From Elusimicrobiales bacterium (GTDB taxonomy: Bacteria > Elusimicrobiota > Elusimicrobia > Elusimicrobiales > UBA9959): a DNA stretch of 52,991 nucleotides. The stretch covers positions 1-52,991 of the forward strand of contig JAILAB010000069.1 of assembly GCA_024681855.1 (NCBI GenBank), written 5' to 3'. Positions 9,588-16,320 of this stretch are shown piece after piece. Below the pieces are notes generated by a model that worked only from the letters and a program-made list of their open reading frames with translations, was not told the origin of the DNA and did no database searches. A program made the translations under genes and the position numbers. Each line of letters starts with the position of its first letter. The stretch's first letter is position 1.

Positions 9588-11144
9588 TTATTCTTCTGTC
9601 TCAGGTTTTTGATTCATATAATAAGATAGGCAAAATGTCTCTCCGCGTTTTATAGCCTGCCTAGTTTTATAAAAACATGGATTTTTGCCAATTTTTTTTG
9701 TTCCTGGCAAAATGCTTGTTTCGCCAGCGGATTCAGCAATGCTTATAAGATAAAAGCCTTTTTCTGTTAACTGGCTATTTCCGAGATCTTTTAATATCGG
9801 ATCATTTAACTTAGAAAAACGCAGGGGACCTCCTCCGTTAAAAAGAATCTCTCTTCCGTCAAGTTCCAACACCAGAGATTCTGCCACATCATATTGAGAA
9901 AAGACAGGAATGTCATTATCTAAATTATTTTTAATAAAATTAGCAATTTCAGCAGCCGATGAAAATGGTTCTTTAAGATCTTTAACAGCAAACCATATTC
10001 CAGATGGAATAAGCAAAAAGAAAAAGATTGCAAGCGCAATTCTGGAGTTTCCCAAATATTTTTGCATCTCGGGGCTAATCTTCTGGCAAGATGAGGCATT
10101 TTTTGAATATGCGCGCCAGAAGAAAAAAATCATTGAGATTGTAAAGCAATGTATTCTCATTGGAAAGATTACTGGATATATAAAAAGATAAACAAAAAAC
10201 TGCGTTGCAAGAGTTGCCGCGCAAAGCCTGAAATCATTAACGGAAATTTTTTTTAGCAGGCGCATTAGAATTATTATCGCAGCTAACCCCGCGGCAGCAC
10301 AGAATAAATTGGAGGCATTTACCGCATAAAGAGAATCTGTGCCGTTAGGAAACATGAATGTGTCAGCAATGAAGCCAGGCGTCAGGGGGGAAAACATGCC
10401 TGAAAAGAAGAAAATTTCCGGATGGAATATTAAAGAGTAAAAAGGGGAAAAATTAAAGGAATCATTTAGGAACATGCCGAAAACAGCTTGGGCAGCAGGC
10501 AATATAAACCCAAGCGGCACTAGTAAATATATTATTCTATATGACCTTTCCATCCTTAATTGTCTTACAAATAAAAATTCCATAAGCAAAAGGCATGAAA
10601 ATCCAGACATTATGAAATGAGTTTGTCCTATAAGCAGCAAGATAAGTATATAAAGAATTTCTAGTTTAGCCGTATATTTTTGATTATGATTATCATTATT
10701 CTGAATTAAACAATTACTGACAGAGGCAGCGGAAAATACAAGAAAAGGCAAAAGAGAATAACTGCGGGATATGACTGGAAAAAAATACAGCAACGGGCCG
10801 CTCAAAGCGATTAAGGAGTTTAGAAATAAAGAAAAAGGAGAGAGAAAAAAGAGCAAAAAAACAGCTGCGGCAGGAAACAGCCAGCAGATAATTTTCATAG
10901 AAATTATGCCAGCCCCGGTTTTAGCAAGAGGATATATCAGAAGGTAAAATAAATATGGATGTCCTTTAGCGGATGCTTCTTTCAGAAGCCCGAAAAAGGA
11001 CAGATCTTGCGCCATAAGCCATGGCTGAGCTTCGTCCGCCCATGTTTCATGATTAAGCACAAGACATAGAGTTATAGCAGCATAGATAAGCGATGCCGCA
11101 AATGCCGCCTTGCCTTTTTTTTGGGTATCAACAGAAAAACACAT
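9588..11144 (-). CDS. GT-C family membrane glycosyltransferase
   Basis: The 518-residue polytopic protein resembles family-39-type mannosyl or arabinosyl transferases, which use polyprenyl-phosphate sugars. After the first membrane segment comes the acidic GT-C signature NHETWADEAQPWLMAQDL, with the Asp-Glu pair. About ten further hydrophobic segments follow, then a soluble C-terminal domain (from about residue 400). The start is set at 11144 because the longer open frame upstream runs through a tRNA gene and its terminator, and its peptide RIAQMGERLVRNEEVRGS is a tRNA read as protein. The ATG has no Shine-Dalgarno and sits 8 bases past the tRNA terminator T run. The sugar and acceptor are unknown; cell-envelope glycans are likely. 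Confidence 0.82.
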   Translation of the reverse strand: MCFSVDTQKKGKAAFAASLIYAAITLCLVLNHETWADEAQPWLMAQDLSFFGLLKEASAKGHPYLFYLLIYPLAKTGAGIISMKIICWLFPAAAVFLLFFLSPFSLFLNSLIALSGPLLYFFPVISRSYSLLPFLVFSAASVSNCLIQNNDNHNQKYTAKLEILYILILLLIGQTHFIMSGFSCLLLMEFLFVRQLRMERSYRIIYLLVPLGFILPAAQAVFGMFLNDSFNFSPFYSLIFHPEIFFFSGMFSPLTPGFIADTFMFPNGTDSLYAVNASNLFCAAAGLAAIIILMRLLKKISVNDFRLCAATLATQFFVYLFIYPVIFPMRIHCFTISMIFFFWRAYSKNASSCQKISPEMQKYLGNSRIALAIFFFLLIPSGIWFAVKDLKEPFSSAAEIANFIKNNLDNDIPVFSQYDVAESLVLELDGREILFNGGGPLRFSKLNDPILKDLGNSQLTEKGFYLISIAESAGETSILPGTKKIGKNPCFYKTRQAIKRGETFCLSYYMNQKPETEE

Positions 11145-11152
11145 TATAAAAT

Positions 11153-11175
11153 AAAAAAACCGCATCAGCTGCGGC
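11153..11175 (-). terminator. Terminator of tRNA-Ala
   Basis: On the minus strand, GCCGCA-GCTGA-TGCGG forms a 5-pair GC-rich hairpin (plus-strand stem arms 11160-11164 and 11170-11174). A run of seven T follows directly. It lies 8 bases after the tRNA 3' end and 8 bases before the glycosyltransferase ATG, so it separates the two, or could attenuate read-through into the transferase. Confidence 0.85.
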
Positions 11176-11182
11176 TTATTTA

Positions 11183-11255
11183 TGGACGTAAGGGGGATCG
11201 AACCCCTGACCTCCTCGTTGCGAACGAGGCGCTCTCCCATCTGAGCTATACGCCC
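11183..11255 (-). tRNA. tRNA-Ala, anticodon CGC
   Basis: All 73 bases fold as a cloverleaf: a 7-pair acceptor (GGGCGTA with TACGTCC), a 4-pair D stem, a 5-pair anticodon stem (CCTCG/CGAGG) with loop TTCGCAA, a 5-base variable loop and a 5-pair T stem with TTCGATC. The anticodon is CGC, reading GCG alanine codons. The third acceptor pair is G3-U70, the alanine identity element. The discriminator is A. CCA is not encoded, so it must be added by a nucleotidyltransferase. Confidence 0.97.
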
Positions 11256-11271
11256 TTCGGTCATTAATATT

Positions 11272-11307: not shown

Positions 11308-12315
11308 TTATCTGTTTTTCTCATTTCTAAGATTGGTCTTATATACTTTTTTAGCCCCTAAATGTTCTTTAAAGTTTGTATTGAATGTATGCCTTCCGGT
11401 GCCGTCCGCAGTGGCTACGAAATATAAGGCATCAAAGTTTTCCAGAGGATTAAGCGCAGCTTCAATGGAGCTTTTGCCTGGGCTGCATATAGGTCCTGGG
11501 GGGAGATGTCTTGAATAATAAGTATTGTAAGGAGATGCAGTCTTCAAGTCTTTTATTGTTATGCCTTTCTTCCACCATCCTTCTCTTTTTTCTCCGTTTT
11601 CATACCAGGTCTGGTATCCTAAGGCATATTGAGTAGTAGGATCGGCTTCCAGCTTCATTCTTTTTTTGCATCTGTTAAGATAAACAGCCGCAATCATCGG
11701 GCGTTCAGAATCAACTACAGCTTCCCTTTCAACTATGGAAGCAATAATCATTACTTTTTTCTCATCCATGCCTTCTTTAAAACCTTGAGCAAATAGGGGA
11801 CGGATCTGCTTTTCAAATTCATTGGCAAATACCTTTAATGCTTCAGAAGCAGATATATTCTTCTTAAACTGATAGGTTGATGGAAAAAGATACCCTTCTT
11901 TATCCTGCGCCTTAGCAAGATCTATAAATTCTTGCGCGCTGGAAATAACGCCATTTGATTGAAGTCTTTCCGCAATTTGTTCCATGCGCCACCCTTCCGG
12001 TATGGTTATATCCGCTGTTTCTGCCATTGGGATAGTAGTTATAAGCTTATGCAATGCCTCTTCGGAGGACATATGAGTGCGCATCATATAGCTGCCCGGC
12101 ATTATTCTTTTGCCTGTTCCAGTTATTTTCACAGCAATTCTAAACCATGTTGTGCTGCTTATTATTTTCTTTTCTTTAAGGGCTTCCGCAGCCTGCCTTG
12201 CTGTTGCGCCTTTAGGTATTATCACCTTAGTCATTTTGCCAGGACAGAAAAAATGCGCGGCAAAAAAAACTATGGCAAAAGAAATTATGCTTAATAAAAT
12301 GCTGCCTTTTTTCAT
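11308..12315 (-). CDS. mltG: Endolytic murein transglycosylase MltG
   Basis: MltG cleaves nascent peptidoglycan strands at the inner membrane and helps set glycan length. The 335-residue protein has one N-terminal membrane anchor (residues 5-25), a LysM-like segment (about 30-95) and the YceG catalytic domain. The catalytic glutamate is Glu196 in ASIVEREAV. The LEADPTTQYALG, ASPYNTY, LPPGPICSPG and FVATADGTGRHTF motifs are all present. Its ATG overlaps the stop of the fecR-like gene (ATGA), so the two are translationally coupled. It is the last protein gene of the ppdK-to-mltG run. Confidence 0.95.
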   Translation of the reverse strand: MKKGSILLSIISFAIVFFAAHFFCPGKMTKVIIPKGATARQAAEALKEKKIISSTTWFRIAVKITGTGKRIMPGSYMMRTHMSSEEALHKLITTIPMAETADITIPEGWRMEQIAERLQSNGVISSAQEFIDLAKAQDKEGYLFPSTYQFKKNISASEALKVFANEFEKQIRPLFAQGFKEGMDEKKVMIIASIVEREAVVDSERPMIAAVYLNRCKKRMKLEADPTTQYALGYQTWYENGEKREGWWKKGITIKDLKTASPYNTYYSRHLPPGPICSPGKSSIEAALNPLENFDALYFVATADGTGRHTFNTNFKEHLGAKKVYKTNLRNEKNR

Positions 12316-13331
12316 TTTTTTATTACACTGAAATCAGAATTTGTCATAACATCATTAAAATCAGCTCTTGAATCAGGATCATTGGATTCATTTACTGTGT
12401 TACGCTGTATCACTACTGAGGTAATCATCAGCTCGCCTCCATCAATGATCTCCTTCCTTATTTCTTCTCTTTCTCCCTCAACATATTTGTCCCATTCTTT
12501 TTTCAATTTAGCCGCAAGAGGGCGTATTTTCTTCTGTTCTTCCTGCAACTCTTTAAGCTGATCTATTTTTACAGCCTTAACATCTATGTCTTTCATCTTA
12601 TAATCAGGATCATCCTTAGGCTTTCCATTCTCGTCAAAATCAGGCAAAGCGGCTGAGTAGACAATTTCCTGATTGTTTTTAAGCTCATACAAACCTAATG
12701 AAAGGCCATGCTCATTTAAAGTTGAGACAGACATTGAGCCAGAATCAAAAACTGCAATTCCAGTTGTTTTTGTCTTAGGCACATAAGCAGCGGCGAAGTC
12801 AGCAGCTGTTATAAGAGAATTGGTATATCTGGTTTTAAGCTTTAAAGTATGTGTCTTATCAAGAAAGCGCTTAACTTTACCGACAAGAGAACCATATCTA
12901 AGTGAAAAATAAGTATCGGTTTTTTCAAGGGATATTATCTGAAACTCCGTCTTTTGAAAAAGATGAAGGAAAACCTTGTCATAAAGTCTTATTTCGGCTT
13001 CAGAATTTGGATAAAGGCGCACAACATCTCCTTTTGCAAGAGGAAGGACTGTTCCTTTTTTCAGTTTCTTTACCTGGTCAGATTTTGCCTGTTTAAGCAG
13101 CATGCTTCCTTTTGTGATGGTAAGCCTTGCATCCCATTCCACGCCGCGCGAATGTATGTATTTTGTTTCCGAAAGCGCAGCTTTAAGCAGCTTGTCGTCT
13201 GCAACGGTTATTTTATCCTTAAAAGGCTCATCAGGGGTAGGAAGCACTATATCCTTAGCCTGCAAAGCAGCAGAAAGCATAATAAGCTGTACAATAGCAA
13301 AAGCAGAGAAAAACTTTTTAATATTTTTCAT
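12312..13331 (-). CDS. FecR-domain periplasmic protein
   Basis: This 339-residue protein has a Sec signal peptide (to about residue 25). A FecR-like beta domain follows at about 75-200: LPLAKGDVVRLYPNSEAEIRLYD, then a FSLRYGSLVGKVKRF stretch where family members read YGS/G-x-V. Residues 240-310 form a charged helical region, likely coiled coil (QLKELQEEQKKIRPLAAKLK). FecR domains often act in envelope signalling or as structural modules. There is no sigma factor or TonB receptor nearby, so a classical FecIR role is unlikely. It is coupled to mltG by a 4-base overlap. No strong ribosome-binding site is visible. Confidence 0.8.
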   Translation of the reverse strand: MKNIKKFFSAFAIVQLIMLSAALQAKDIVLPTPDEPFKDKITVADDKLLKAALSETKYIHSRGVEWDARLTITKGSMLLKQAKSDQVKKLKKGTVLPLAKGDVVRLYPNSEAEIRLYDKVFLHLFQKTEFQIISLEKTDTYFSLRYGSLVGKVKRFLDKTHTLKLKTRYTNSLITAADFAAAYVPKTKTTGIAVFDSGSMSVSTLNEHGLSLGLYELKNNQEIVYSAALPDFDENGKPKDDPDYKMKDIDVKAVKIDQLKELQEEQKKIRPLAAKLKKEWDKYVEGEREEIRKEIIDGGELMITSVVIQRNTVNESNDPDSRADFNDVMTNSDFSVIKK

Positions 13332-13373: not shown

Positions 13374-15461
13374 TCATGGAAAATGATATGGATCAGGGAC
13401 TATGAAAAACTTTACTCCATCTGGCAGAGGCAAAGAGTTTGCAATCTCAAGAGAATCAGATGCCGCTTTGTCTGTAAAAGATTTTAATATCCAGTATTCG
13501 CTGAAAAATTTTCTGTTTTCCTGGCCCTTTGGAATCACCGGGCCCTGCAGCTCTGCTTTTTTTTCATCGCATACTGCTCTCATTGCCGCATTAAGCCTTT
13601 TCCCGCAAGTTTTTACCGCAGCTTCATTCACTGAAGCAAAACGCACAAGCAAAAGCTGCGAATACGGAGGATATTTGAAAAACTGCCTAGCTTTCAGTTC
13701 CTCATCACAGAAATCATAATAAGAACCATGCGCAAGAGAGGTAAAAATATAACTGTCCGGCTCTCTAGTCTGCAATAATATTTCGCCATTTGGCGAAAGA
13801 AGCTCTTTAGCATATAAAACCATGCGCATAAATTTTTCCGAAGCTCTGAAATCTGGGCTGGAAAAATCAGCTCCTGCGTCCAGAAAGAGAATACAGTCAA
13901 GGCTTTGCGGAATCAAACTTCTCAAAGCTAATCTTGTGGCAATAAGAATGTCTGATTTTCCTAATAAAAAAGAATGCAGTGTCTCCTCAATTTTTTTTGA
14001 TGAAGCCTTAAGGATGTCTCCGTCATATCTGACTATTTTCTTTTCGGGAACAAGTTTTTTTAAATATGTTTCAGCTTTTTGAGTTCCAATGCCAAATTCA
14101 CGGAAGACATTACCGCCGCAGCAATGGCATTTGTCCGGCATGGGCAGCTTTCTGCCGCAATGCCTGCAAAGAAGAATTTTTTCTCCTGAAGGATTTTTTA
14201 TTAAAGCTAAGCCCGGCCCGCATTTAGGGCAGCGCAGCATTTTCCCGCAGCTTGCGCAGAAAATTCGCGAAACATACCCTTTTCTGGATGCGATTACAGC
14301 TATTTTCTTCCCGGCTAAAGCGATGCTGCGTATCTTGCCGCTTATGCTTGATGACAGCAGAGCCCCTTGAAAAGATTCTGTTCCCATATCTACAATTTTT
14401 ATTTTAGAATTTGTATTTTCTGTTTCCTTTTTTTTCTCCAAAGCAGGGGAAATTCTGTTTTCATTATCTGAAGCATCGGAAGCAATATTTATGAAATGGC
14501 ATTTTCCAGACTTGGCAAGCCCATAAGACTCAACCGAAGGAAATTGAGAAACCATAGCATTTATTCCGCCTAAGGCATCAATCCTGCGCATGAGCACTTC
14601 TGAGGCATCATATAAGGGTTCCCTTTCCTCATTTCTGTATGCCGCTTCATGGAAAGAGTCTATAATGGCTATGCGCAGCCTGGCAAACGGAAGAAAGACC
14701 GCAGTCCTAGTTCCTATCAAAAGACGGATTTGCCCCGAAATAATTTTTTTGATAATTTCATTTTTCTTTTTTTGCGTAAGCATAGAATGCCACACGCCTA
14801 AAGCACTTCCAAAGAAAGGCAAAAGTTCCTTATATGCCCTGTTTGCGCATTCCGCATCAGGCACAAGAAAAAGAATTTGAATATTTTTAGCCTTTTTCGC
14901 AACAAGGCCCGCAAGGACAATTGTTTTTTCTGATGGCAGCGCTAAAAGAAAATTCTTTTTCTTTTTTGAAGAAATATCATTTATAGAATCAAAGAAAGGG
15001 GAGAGAGCATACAACTCTGTTTCTAAAAAAGCTTTTTCTTTTTCAGGGAAAAAACAGTCATCAGGCAAAGAGAGAATTGTGTCAGGCTGCGGAAGATTAT
15101 GTTCAGAAAAACGCAATAAGGAATTATTTTCCTGGCATTCCGGAATATTCAAAAAAAATTCGCCAGCGCACATTCCCAGAGAAGATCCCCATTTCTTCTC
15201 CATAAATTTTGCTATTTCTAACACAGATTCTTCAAAAAGAGGCTCAGAATCTATAAGTTTTTTAATTGATTTAAGTCTTTTAATTCCTGAAAGATCTGCA
15301 TCTTTTTCAGCAAGAACACTAAGAATTATGCCAACAGAATTTTTTGTTCCCAACGATACGGAAACTCTAAGGCCAGGCGCAGCCACAAGCTCCATATCTT
15401 CCGGCAATGCATAGTGAAAGCTCCTTTTTAAAGGGATAGGAAAAATTACCTCTGCCAGCAT
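13374..15461 (-). CDS. priA: PriA-like primosomal protein with degenerate helicase motifs
   Basis: PriA restarts stalled replication forks by binding branched DNA and loading the replicative helicase. The 695-residue protein keeps the overall layout: an N-terminal 3'-DNA-binding domain (FPIPLKRSFHYALP, GLRVSV), the zinc-binding region starting at Cys402 (CASCGKMLRCPKCG, then CRHCG and CHCCGG), GIGTQKAE, SPDFRASE, and the C-terminal YPPYSQL domain. The ATPase motifs are damaged: the P-loop around residue 173 reads LALPSEKT instead of GxTGSGKT, the DEEH box is DSFH (268-271), and the motif VI segment near 545-556 lacks the QVAGRAGR arginines. The frame is intact, so this looks like an evolved pseudohelicase, not a broken gene. 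No clear Shine-Dalgarno precedes the ATG. Confidence 0.9.
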   Translation of the reverse strand: MLAEVIFPIPLKRSFHYALPEDMELVAAPGLRVSVSLGTKNSVGIILSVLAEKDADLSGIKRLKSIKKLIDSEPLFEESVLEIAKFMEKKWGSSLGMCAGEFFLNIPECQENNSLLRFSEHNLPQPDTILSLPDDCFFPEKEKAFLETELYALSPFFDSINDISSKKKKNFLLALPSEKTIVLAGLVAKKAKNIQILFLVPDAECANRAYKELLPFFGSALGVWHSMLTQKKKNEIIKKIISGQIRLLIGTRTAVFLPFARLRIAIIDSFHEAAYRNEEREPLYDASEVLMRRIDALGGINAMVSQFPSVESYGLAKSGKCHFINIASDASDNENRISPALEKKKETENTNSKIKIVDMGTESFQGALLSSSISGKIRSIALAGKKIAVIASRKGYVSRIFCASCGKMLRCPKCGPGLALIKNPSGEKILLCRHCGRKLPMPDKCHCCGGNVFREFGIGTQKAETYLKKLVPEKKIVRYDGDILKASSKKIEETLHSFLLGKSDILIATRLALRSLIPQSLDCILFLDAGADFSSPDFRASEKFMRMVLYAKELLSPNGEILLQTREPDSYIFTSLAHGSYYDFCDEELKARQFFKYPPYSQLLLVRFASVNEAAVKTCGKRLNAAMRAVCDEKKAELQGPVIPKGQENRKFFSEYWILKSFTDKAASDSLEIANSLPLPDGVKFFIVPDPYHFP

Positions 15462-15474
15462 CTGGAAGGAAAAA

Positions 15475-16320
15475 CTATTGGCTTGCAGAATCTAGCAAGT
15501 CTTTTACGAGAAGAATGTCATGCCAAGTGTCACGCTTCAGATTTTGATTTCGCAGCAAGGCAGCCGGATGATATGTTGGAATAACCTTAATTGTATGCCG
15601 AAGGCCTGGAATGTCTGATTCATAATCATAAACATGCCCCCTTAAAAAGGAAATTCCTTTATTTGTCTTAAGAAGAAATTTTGCCGCTACGGATCCCAAT
15701 GGCACAATACAGACAGGCTGTATTATTCTTATCTGCTCTTCAAGATAATGCCTGCACTTTTCAATTTCATCAGGAGCAGGAGGCCTGTCATTTGAATGCG
15801 CTTCCGGGGTTTCAGGATTTTTCATCGGATGGCACTTGACGATATTTGCGATATACACATCCGAGCGGCGCAAGGACAAGACTTTTTCCATTATTTTGTC
15901 TAATAGCTGGCCCGAACGGCCTACAAAAGGCTCGCCCTGATGATCTTCCTGAAAACCAGGGCCTTCGCCCACAAACATTAGTTTTGCCTTAGAGCTGCCT
16001 ATGCCAAAAACAGGATTCAGACGGCTTATTCCAAGCGGACAGTCCCTGCACGCAATCACTTGTTCTCTTAGACTCTCAAGAGATATTTTTTTTTGAGGTT
16101 CAAATTTTTTTTCTGCTGCTGCCTGAAAGAACAGATGTTCCGCTGCCGCCATTGCTTCGTTTTTTTCTGTTTCCGCCATAAGATCTTCCACCGAATCTAT
16201 ATTTGCAGGAGCATTATCTGAGGGCACAGCGCTAGTATAAATCAGATTTTCGTCCTGATCTTTCAGCCATGCCCTCAAGTCGCGGGACAGTTTTTTTAAT
16301 TCGTCTTTCAGATGGCTCAC
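15475..16320 (-). CDS. Family 4 uracil-DNA glycosylase, Fe-S cluster type
   Basis: The enzyme removes uracil from DNA. The 281-residue protein has a variable helical N-terminus (to about 80), then the family-4 domain. It carries cysteines for a 4Fe-4S cluster at 91, 94, 163 and 189, the active-site motif GEGPGFQED (118-126), PFVGRSGQLLD, and the DNA-binding HPAALLRN motif near residue 250. The start is GTG at 16320, overlapping the stop of the upstream gene (GTGA). The adjacent rpoZ-like gene and priA place it in a genome-maintenance cluster. Confidence 0.93.
   Translation of the reverse strand: MSHLKDELKKLSRDLRAWLKDQDENLIYTSAVPSDNAPANIDSVEDLMAETEKNEAMAAAEHLFFQAAAEKKFEPQKKISLESLREQVIACRDCPLGISRLNPVFGIGSSKAKLMFVGEGPGFQEDHQGEPFVGRSGQLLDKIMEKVLSLRRSDVYIANIVKCHPMKNPETPEAHSNDRPPAPDEIEKCRHYLEEQIRIIQPVCIVPLGSVAAKFLLKTNKGISFLRGHVYDYESDIPGLRHTIKVIPTYHPAALLRNQNLKRDTWHDILLVKDLLDSASQ

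What the first reader, a model, noticed from the sequence alone, without database searches (positions are those of the whole stretch)
13374..15461. PriA with degenerate ATPase motifs: a probable pseudohelicase
Motif I (LALPSEKT), motif II (DSFH at 268-271) and motif VI (no QVAGRAGR, residues 545-556) have all lost key residues. The zinc-binding cysteines, DNA-binding N-terminus and C-terminal domain remain. The frame is intact and sits in a conserved cluster. A Deinococcus radiodurans PriA has been described as a pseudohelicase, so loss of ATPase with retention of loading is plausible. This case affects three motifs.
Basis: partly seen in the sequence, partly recalled or inferred. Interest (0 to 1): 0.65.

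Follow-up and report, generated by a model that had tools for sequence, protein, structure and literature searches.

The report
Replication-restart PriA with dead motor
This gene encodes PriA, the protein that restarts stalled DNA replication, but its ATP-burning motor has decayed while the parts that should grip DNA are kept, and the same motor loss occurred at least four times in one bacterial phylum (Elusimicrobiota), which makes the unexplained purpose of the PriA motor testable.

Summary
Window 13374-15461(-) encodes a 695-aa PriA, the only one found in this genome. Motif I is LALPSE-KT (intact relatives GxxxSGKT), motif II DSFH (DEE[H/Q/D]), motif III VSQFP (GSATP), and motif VI is gone (QxxGRxGR). 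All eight zinc cysteines, the 3'-DNA-binding domain and the invariant C-terminal residues remain. The AlphaFold model matches E. coli PriA on a fork. RecG and Mfd of the same genome have intact motifs, so this is not poor sequence. The most basal sampled branches still have motifs I and II, so the motif VI arginine probably went first. Other lineages of the phylum keep all motifs. An RpoB tree plus one nested symbiont-like genome give at least four independent losses in Elusimicrobiota. dN/dS of 0.07-0.22 shows the degenerate gene is maintained. DnaB and DciA are present. Best reading: an ATPase-dead replication-restart platform, like the Deinococcus radiodurans pseudohelicase but arisen independently. 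Biochemistry is untested. New member of a known kind.

The parts
13374..15461 (-). priA gene, 695 aa, degenerate helicase core (predicted pseudohelicase)
   Evidence: TIGR00595 259 bits over cut-off 230; only PriA found in the genome; AF2 model pLDDT 89, best PDB match E. coli PriA 8fak TM 0.77
15168..15461 (-). 3'-DNA-binding domain, residues 1-98, retained
   Evidence: PF17764 E 8.5e-19
14922..14945 (-). motif I (Walker A) remnant LALPSEKT, residues 173-180, one residue shorter than GxxxSGKT
14649..14660 (-). motif II (Walker B) remnant DSFH, residues 268-271
14535..14552 (-). motif III remnant VSQFPS, residues 304-309 (GSATPS in intact copies)
14118..14258 (-). cysteine-rich region with all eight zinc-binding cysteines (402, 405, 411, 414, 432, 435, 445, 448)
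13797..13823 (-). place of motif VI, now MVLYAKELL (QxxGRxGR in intact copies)
13377..13664 (-). C-terminal domain, residues 600-695
   Evidence: fold match to PriA; invariant G640, P641, K660, P691 kept
15475..16320 (-). uracil-DNA glycosylase, conserved upstream neighbour of priA
   Evidence: PF03167 2.5e-35; synteny
11308..13331 (-). downstream neighbours: FecR-like protein (12312-13331) and MltG/YceG (11308-12315)

Best explanation
The gene encodes a PriA that has lost ATP hydrolysis (and probably ATP binding), and therefore unwinding, but still works as the structure-specific platform of replication restart. It would recognise an abandoned fork or D-loop with its 3'-binding domain, helicase-fold body and C-terminal domain, and would use the zinc-bound cysteine-rich region and body to help bring in DnaB, loaded with DciA since these genomes carry DciA. 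If the lagging strand must be cleared first, another helicase (RecG, a UvrD-type or RecQ enzyme is encoded) would do it. Shown here: motif loss, retained domains and fold, single copy, purifying selection, at least four independent losses, DnaB and DciA presence. Inferred: absence of ATPase activity, fork binding, DnaB recruitment and the substitute helicase.
For: Four helicase motifs degraded in the window while 8/8 Zn cysteines and 43/60 non-ATP invariant columns stay. All 61 full-length PriAs examined from the two families of the order lack a complete motif VI; 57 copies elsewhere in the phylum keep the motifs. dN/dS 0.07-0.22 for close pairs of degenerate copies. AF2 model pLDDT 89, pTM 0.89; top PDB match is E. 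coli PriA on a fork with PriB, 8fak. RecG and Mfd of the same genome have intact motifs. DnaB in 28/29 and DciA in 26/29 genomes sampled. In E. [quoted passage not shown] D. radiodurans PriA lacks ATPase but binds DNA and DnaB (PMC4504706).
Against: No biochemistry. A Lys and a Thr remain at the end of motif I (E-KT), so weak nucleotide binding cannot be excluded. Some helicase-core columns outside the ATP motifs are changed too, so DNA handling may differ. How PriA reaches DnaB in DciA organisms is not known to me in general.
Confidence: 0.82

Rival explanations
1. The gene is on its way out: PriA function as a whole is relaxed in this lineage and the protein is decaying.
For: Erosion is graded; some lineages also lost one zinc site (G137, G242, G243); degenerate clades have long branches in the PriA tree; G272 is a 0.4-Mb genome.
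Against: Open frames in all copies sampled in the order, dN/dS 0.07-0.22 overall and low in all domains except the linker, eight cysteines and E588, R592, P598, P599 invariant or nearly so in all groups, conserved gene neighbourhood.
Confidence: 0.07
2. The protein keeps a residual or remodelled ATPase, or uses nucleotide binding as a switch without hydrolysis.
For: K179-T180 remain in the window; family f2 genus g15 keeps GxxxxGKT with altered motifs II and VI, which would fit nucleotide binding without hydrolysis in part of the order.
Against: Within the window's family the P-loop glycines, the Lys and the motif II acids change freely from genus to genus, and the congener has LLPAE-KQ and DASA.
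Confidence: 0.08
3. The protein was recruited to a new, non-restart role (for example as a partner of the neighbouring uracil-DNA glycosylase).
For: priA and the UDG gene are neighbours in nearly all genomes of the family.
Against: The same adjacency is found in lineages with intact PriA, so it is not linked to motif loss; no other PriA was found to do restart.
Confidence: 0.03

Closest known systems
Deinococcus radiodurans PriA pseudohelicase (Deinococcus-Thermus PriA; PMC4504706)
   Same: PriA with degraded Walker A and B; DNA-binding domains and cysteine-rich region kept; ATPase and helicase activity shown absent there, predicted absent here
   Different: There the published hallmark is Lys to Arg in GKT plus motif II change; here the P-loop is shortened and motifs II, III and VI are gone too. 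Independent origin in another phylum, with at least four separate losses and intermediates
Actinobacterial PriA (NCBIfam PRK14873; 'smaller and very divergent', Rocha et al. 2005, PMC1193525)
   Same: Divergent PriA
   Different: Window scores far better with ordinary PriA models (293 bits) than with PRK14873 models (at most 114 bits)
E. coli / Klebsiella PriA (8fak, 6dgd, 4nl4)
   Same: Same overall fold and eight zinc cysteines
   Different: ATP-site motifs lost; the stretch between the 3'-binding domain and the helicase core, where E. coli has a winged helix, is short and poorly modelled (pLDDT 51-69 around residues 110-150)
E. coli PriA K230R/K230A ATPase-dead mutants
   Same: Functional parallel: restart platform without a motor
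   Different: Laboratory point mutants of an otherwise intact enzyme

Membership tests
PriA (TIGR00595) | Score above curated cut-off for replication restart helicase PriA | tested here: met
   259 vs 230.35 bits
PriA (TIGR00595) | 3'-DNA-binding domain | tested here: met
   PF17764 67.6 bits
PriA (TIGR00595) | Cysteine-rich region with eight zinc-binding cysteines inside helicase lobe 2 | tested here: met
PriA (TIGR00595) | PriA fold including C-terminal domain | tested here: met
   Foldseek 8fak TMq 0.77, E 2.5e-47; Pfam PriA_C itself only E 0.14
PriA (TIGR00595) | Active SF2 helicase motifs I, II, III, VI | tested here: not met
PriA pseudohelicase (D. radiodurans type) | Walker A and B residues lost in a single-copy PriA | tested here: met
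PriA pseudohelicase (D. radiodurans type) | Lys to Arg in GKT typical of Deinococcus-Thermus | tested here: not met
   window has E-KT; GR occurs in genera g3 and g8 of the same family
PriA pseudohelicase (D. radiodurans type) | No ATPase or unwinding activity | not testable with these tools
   needs protein
PriA pseudohelicase (D. radiodurans type) | Retained fork binding and DnaB interaction | not testable with these tools
   needs protein; DnaB is encoded in the genome
Actinobacterial PriA PRK14873 | Best match to PRK14873 models | tested here: not met
   113.6 bits vs 293.5 bits for PRK05580

The most novel reading that the evidence does not exclude
PriA's motor is dispensable in a repeatable way: in Elusimicrobiota it was lost at least four times, in the largest clade beginning with the motif VI arginine, and restart runs on a motor-free PriA with DnaB and DciA. 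Whether the motor is kept would then depend on a second, still unknown clearing activity or fork type.
Probability: 0.5. Interest if true: 0.65.

Novelty: new member of a known kind. Interest (0 to 1): 0.5.

Why it matters
PriA's helicase activity is dispensable in E. coli yet its motifs are conserved in nearly all bacteria (PMC4504706), so what the motor is for is open. A phylum with intact, intermediate and motor-dead copies side by side, several independent losses, and (if the identification of one genome from its length is right) a cultured member with a dead copy, Elusimicrobium minutum, is a natural experiment on that question. It also warns that the annotation 'replication restart helicase PriA' is misleading for this order.

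Tried and rejected
A single-sequence scan of GTDB contigs found nothing; an alignment query worked. Sequencing error or mis-assembly was rejected, because the congener and the other full-length PriAs of the order share the state and RecG and Mfd are intact. Shifted intact motifs were rejected by a six-frame motif scan of the locus. A second PriA was not found in the 90% complete assembly, and relatives show one each. Acquisition from Deinococcus or Actinobacteria was judged unlikely because the PriA tree follows taxonomy apart from long-branch rows and NCBIfam scores favour ordinary PriA. A compensating helicase was sought: UvrD-type is in all genomes sampled and RecQ presence does not track PriA state, so no candidate emerged. 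The literature search found no paper on PriA in Elusimicrobiota in the held library.

Full report
What is there. The ORF at 13374-15461 on the minus strand encodes 695 residues and is PriA by curated model (259 bits against a cut-off of 230), with a clear 3'-DNA-binding domain. It is the only PriA found in the genome (2.02 Mb, 90% complete); the other hits of the same search are the Mfd and RecG genes, and these keep GxVGxGKT, DE[E/Q]H and QLRGRxGR. The same assembly therefore yields normal SF2 motifs in its other helicases.

Motifs. I aligned PriA from 61 same-order genomes with full-length copies (33 from the window's family f1, 28 from the second family f2) with 57 motif-intact copies from the same phylum. 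In the window motif I is LALPSE-KT, motif II DSFH, motif III VSQFP and motif VI is absent. Of 75 columns at least 95% conserved among intact copies, the window keeps 4 of 15 in motifs I, II, III and VI, 8 of 8 zinc cysteines and 35 of 52 others. The same bias holds in each degenerate lineage tested separately (P from about 3e-5 to 5e-3; columns and rows are not independent, so these are guides). Residues E588, R592, P598 and P599 at the start of the C-terminal part are kept in all groups.

Lineage. Named hits place the genome in Elusimicrobiota, with several records labelled Elusimicrobiales. All 61 full-length PriAs examined from the order lack a complete motif VI; family f2 genus g15 and a few f1 genera keep a GKT loop, others have lost it. 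The branches near the base, G124 in f2 and G006/G016 in f1 (positions from the RpoB tree), still have GxxxxGK[S/T] and DEEQ but only the first half of motif VI (AGRL, SGRL). The last arginine of motif VI, the arginine-finger position by general SF2 knowledge, was therefore probably lost before motifs I and II; this ordering is parsimony on few basal rows.

Independent losses. Elsewhere in the phylum f3-f15, f20-f25 and f27-f29 are intact, while f16-f19, f26 and one f21 genome (G272, 0.4 Mb, among intact relatives) are degenerate. On an RpoB tree of 27 genomes the state needs three changes; the order groups with intact f15, and f26 groups with intact f20/f21/f25, both with strong support. G272 gave no RpoB hit and adds a fourth: the PriA tree nests it inside intact f21. 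On the PriA tree, built without motif columns, f19 and f26 sit on very long branches and their places are unsure, so I rely on RpoB for these.

Selection and structure. Close pairs of degenerate copies from f1 and f2 give dN/dS 0.07-0.22 over the gene; values are low in all domains and highest in the linker after the 3'-binding domain. The window-congener pair (55% identity) is saturated at synonymous sites. The AlphaFold model (pLDDT 89, pTM 0.89) matches E. coli PriA on a fork with PriB (8fak, TM 0.77) and all other solved PriA chains before any other helicase.

Surroundings. MltG - FecR-like - priA - UDG - 114-aa ORF - Gmk - PPDK is conserved in nearly all genomes of the family where the contig reaches. 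priA-UDG adjacency is also found in lineages with intact PriA, so the cluster does not explain the loss. DnaB is found in 28 of 29 and DciA in 26 of 29 genomes sampled, irrespective of PriA state. UvrD-type helicases are present in all 29 and RecQ is patchy without relation to PriA state.

Mechanism. [quoted passage not shown] coli, and uses ATPase-inactive K230A PriA to load DnaB in vitro (PMC10175261). D. radiodurans PriA lacks ATPase and helicase activity but binds DNA and DnaB (PMC4504706). The simplest account of the present protein is the same: a fork-recognising, DnaB-recruiting platform without a motor. That it binds forks and DnaB is inferred from retained domains, not shown.

Membership. 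It is a PriA by model, fold and zinc cysteines, but fails the active helicase motifs, so it should not be called a helicase. It is expected to work like the D. radiodurans pseudohelicase without sharing its origin or its exact substitutions.

Cultured member. G045 is a single 1,643,562-bp contig, which is the length I recall for Elusimicrobium minutum Pei191. This identification is from memory and not tested; its motifs read APPKTGKK, VNEE, LSQTP and no motif VI.

Novelty. PriA pseudohelicases are known from Deinococcus-Thermus, and a divergent PriA from Actinobacteria (PMC1193525). I found no report for Elusimicrobiota (only open-licence papers are held). The repeated and graded loss inside one phylum is what adds to the known picture.

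Noticed in passing
L066 ORF residue 367 (LKERIGS); window about residues 326-350: An arginine present in 57 of 57 intact PriAs is missing in every degenerate lineage; it may couple ATP use to DNA. The region is gappy, so the alignment is unsure.
   Followed up: partly
L108 (G137), L110 (G243), L111 (G242): Some degenerate PriAs have also lost the inner zinc cysteines (CC----CC).
   Followed up: no
L094 / L161 (G272): A 0.4-Mb genome in otherwise intact family f21 has a PriA without motifs I and VI but with DEEH, and no DciA or RpoB hit; probably a strongly reduced symbiont or an incomplete bin.
   Followed up: partly
L053 (G045): Genome of the length recalled for Elusimicrobium minutum; no DciA match at threshold although DnaB is present.
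   Followed up: no
window 9588-11264 (-) and 11183-11255 (-): The 558-aa ORF begins inside a tRNA-Ala gene (its first residues RIAQMGERLVRNEEVRGSIPLTS are translated tRNA); the true start is downstream.
   Followed up: yes
window 15475-16320 (-): Uracil-DNA glycosylase gene next to priA in most genomes of the phylum, with intact or degenerate PriA alike.
   Followed up: partly
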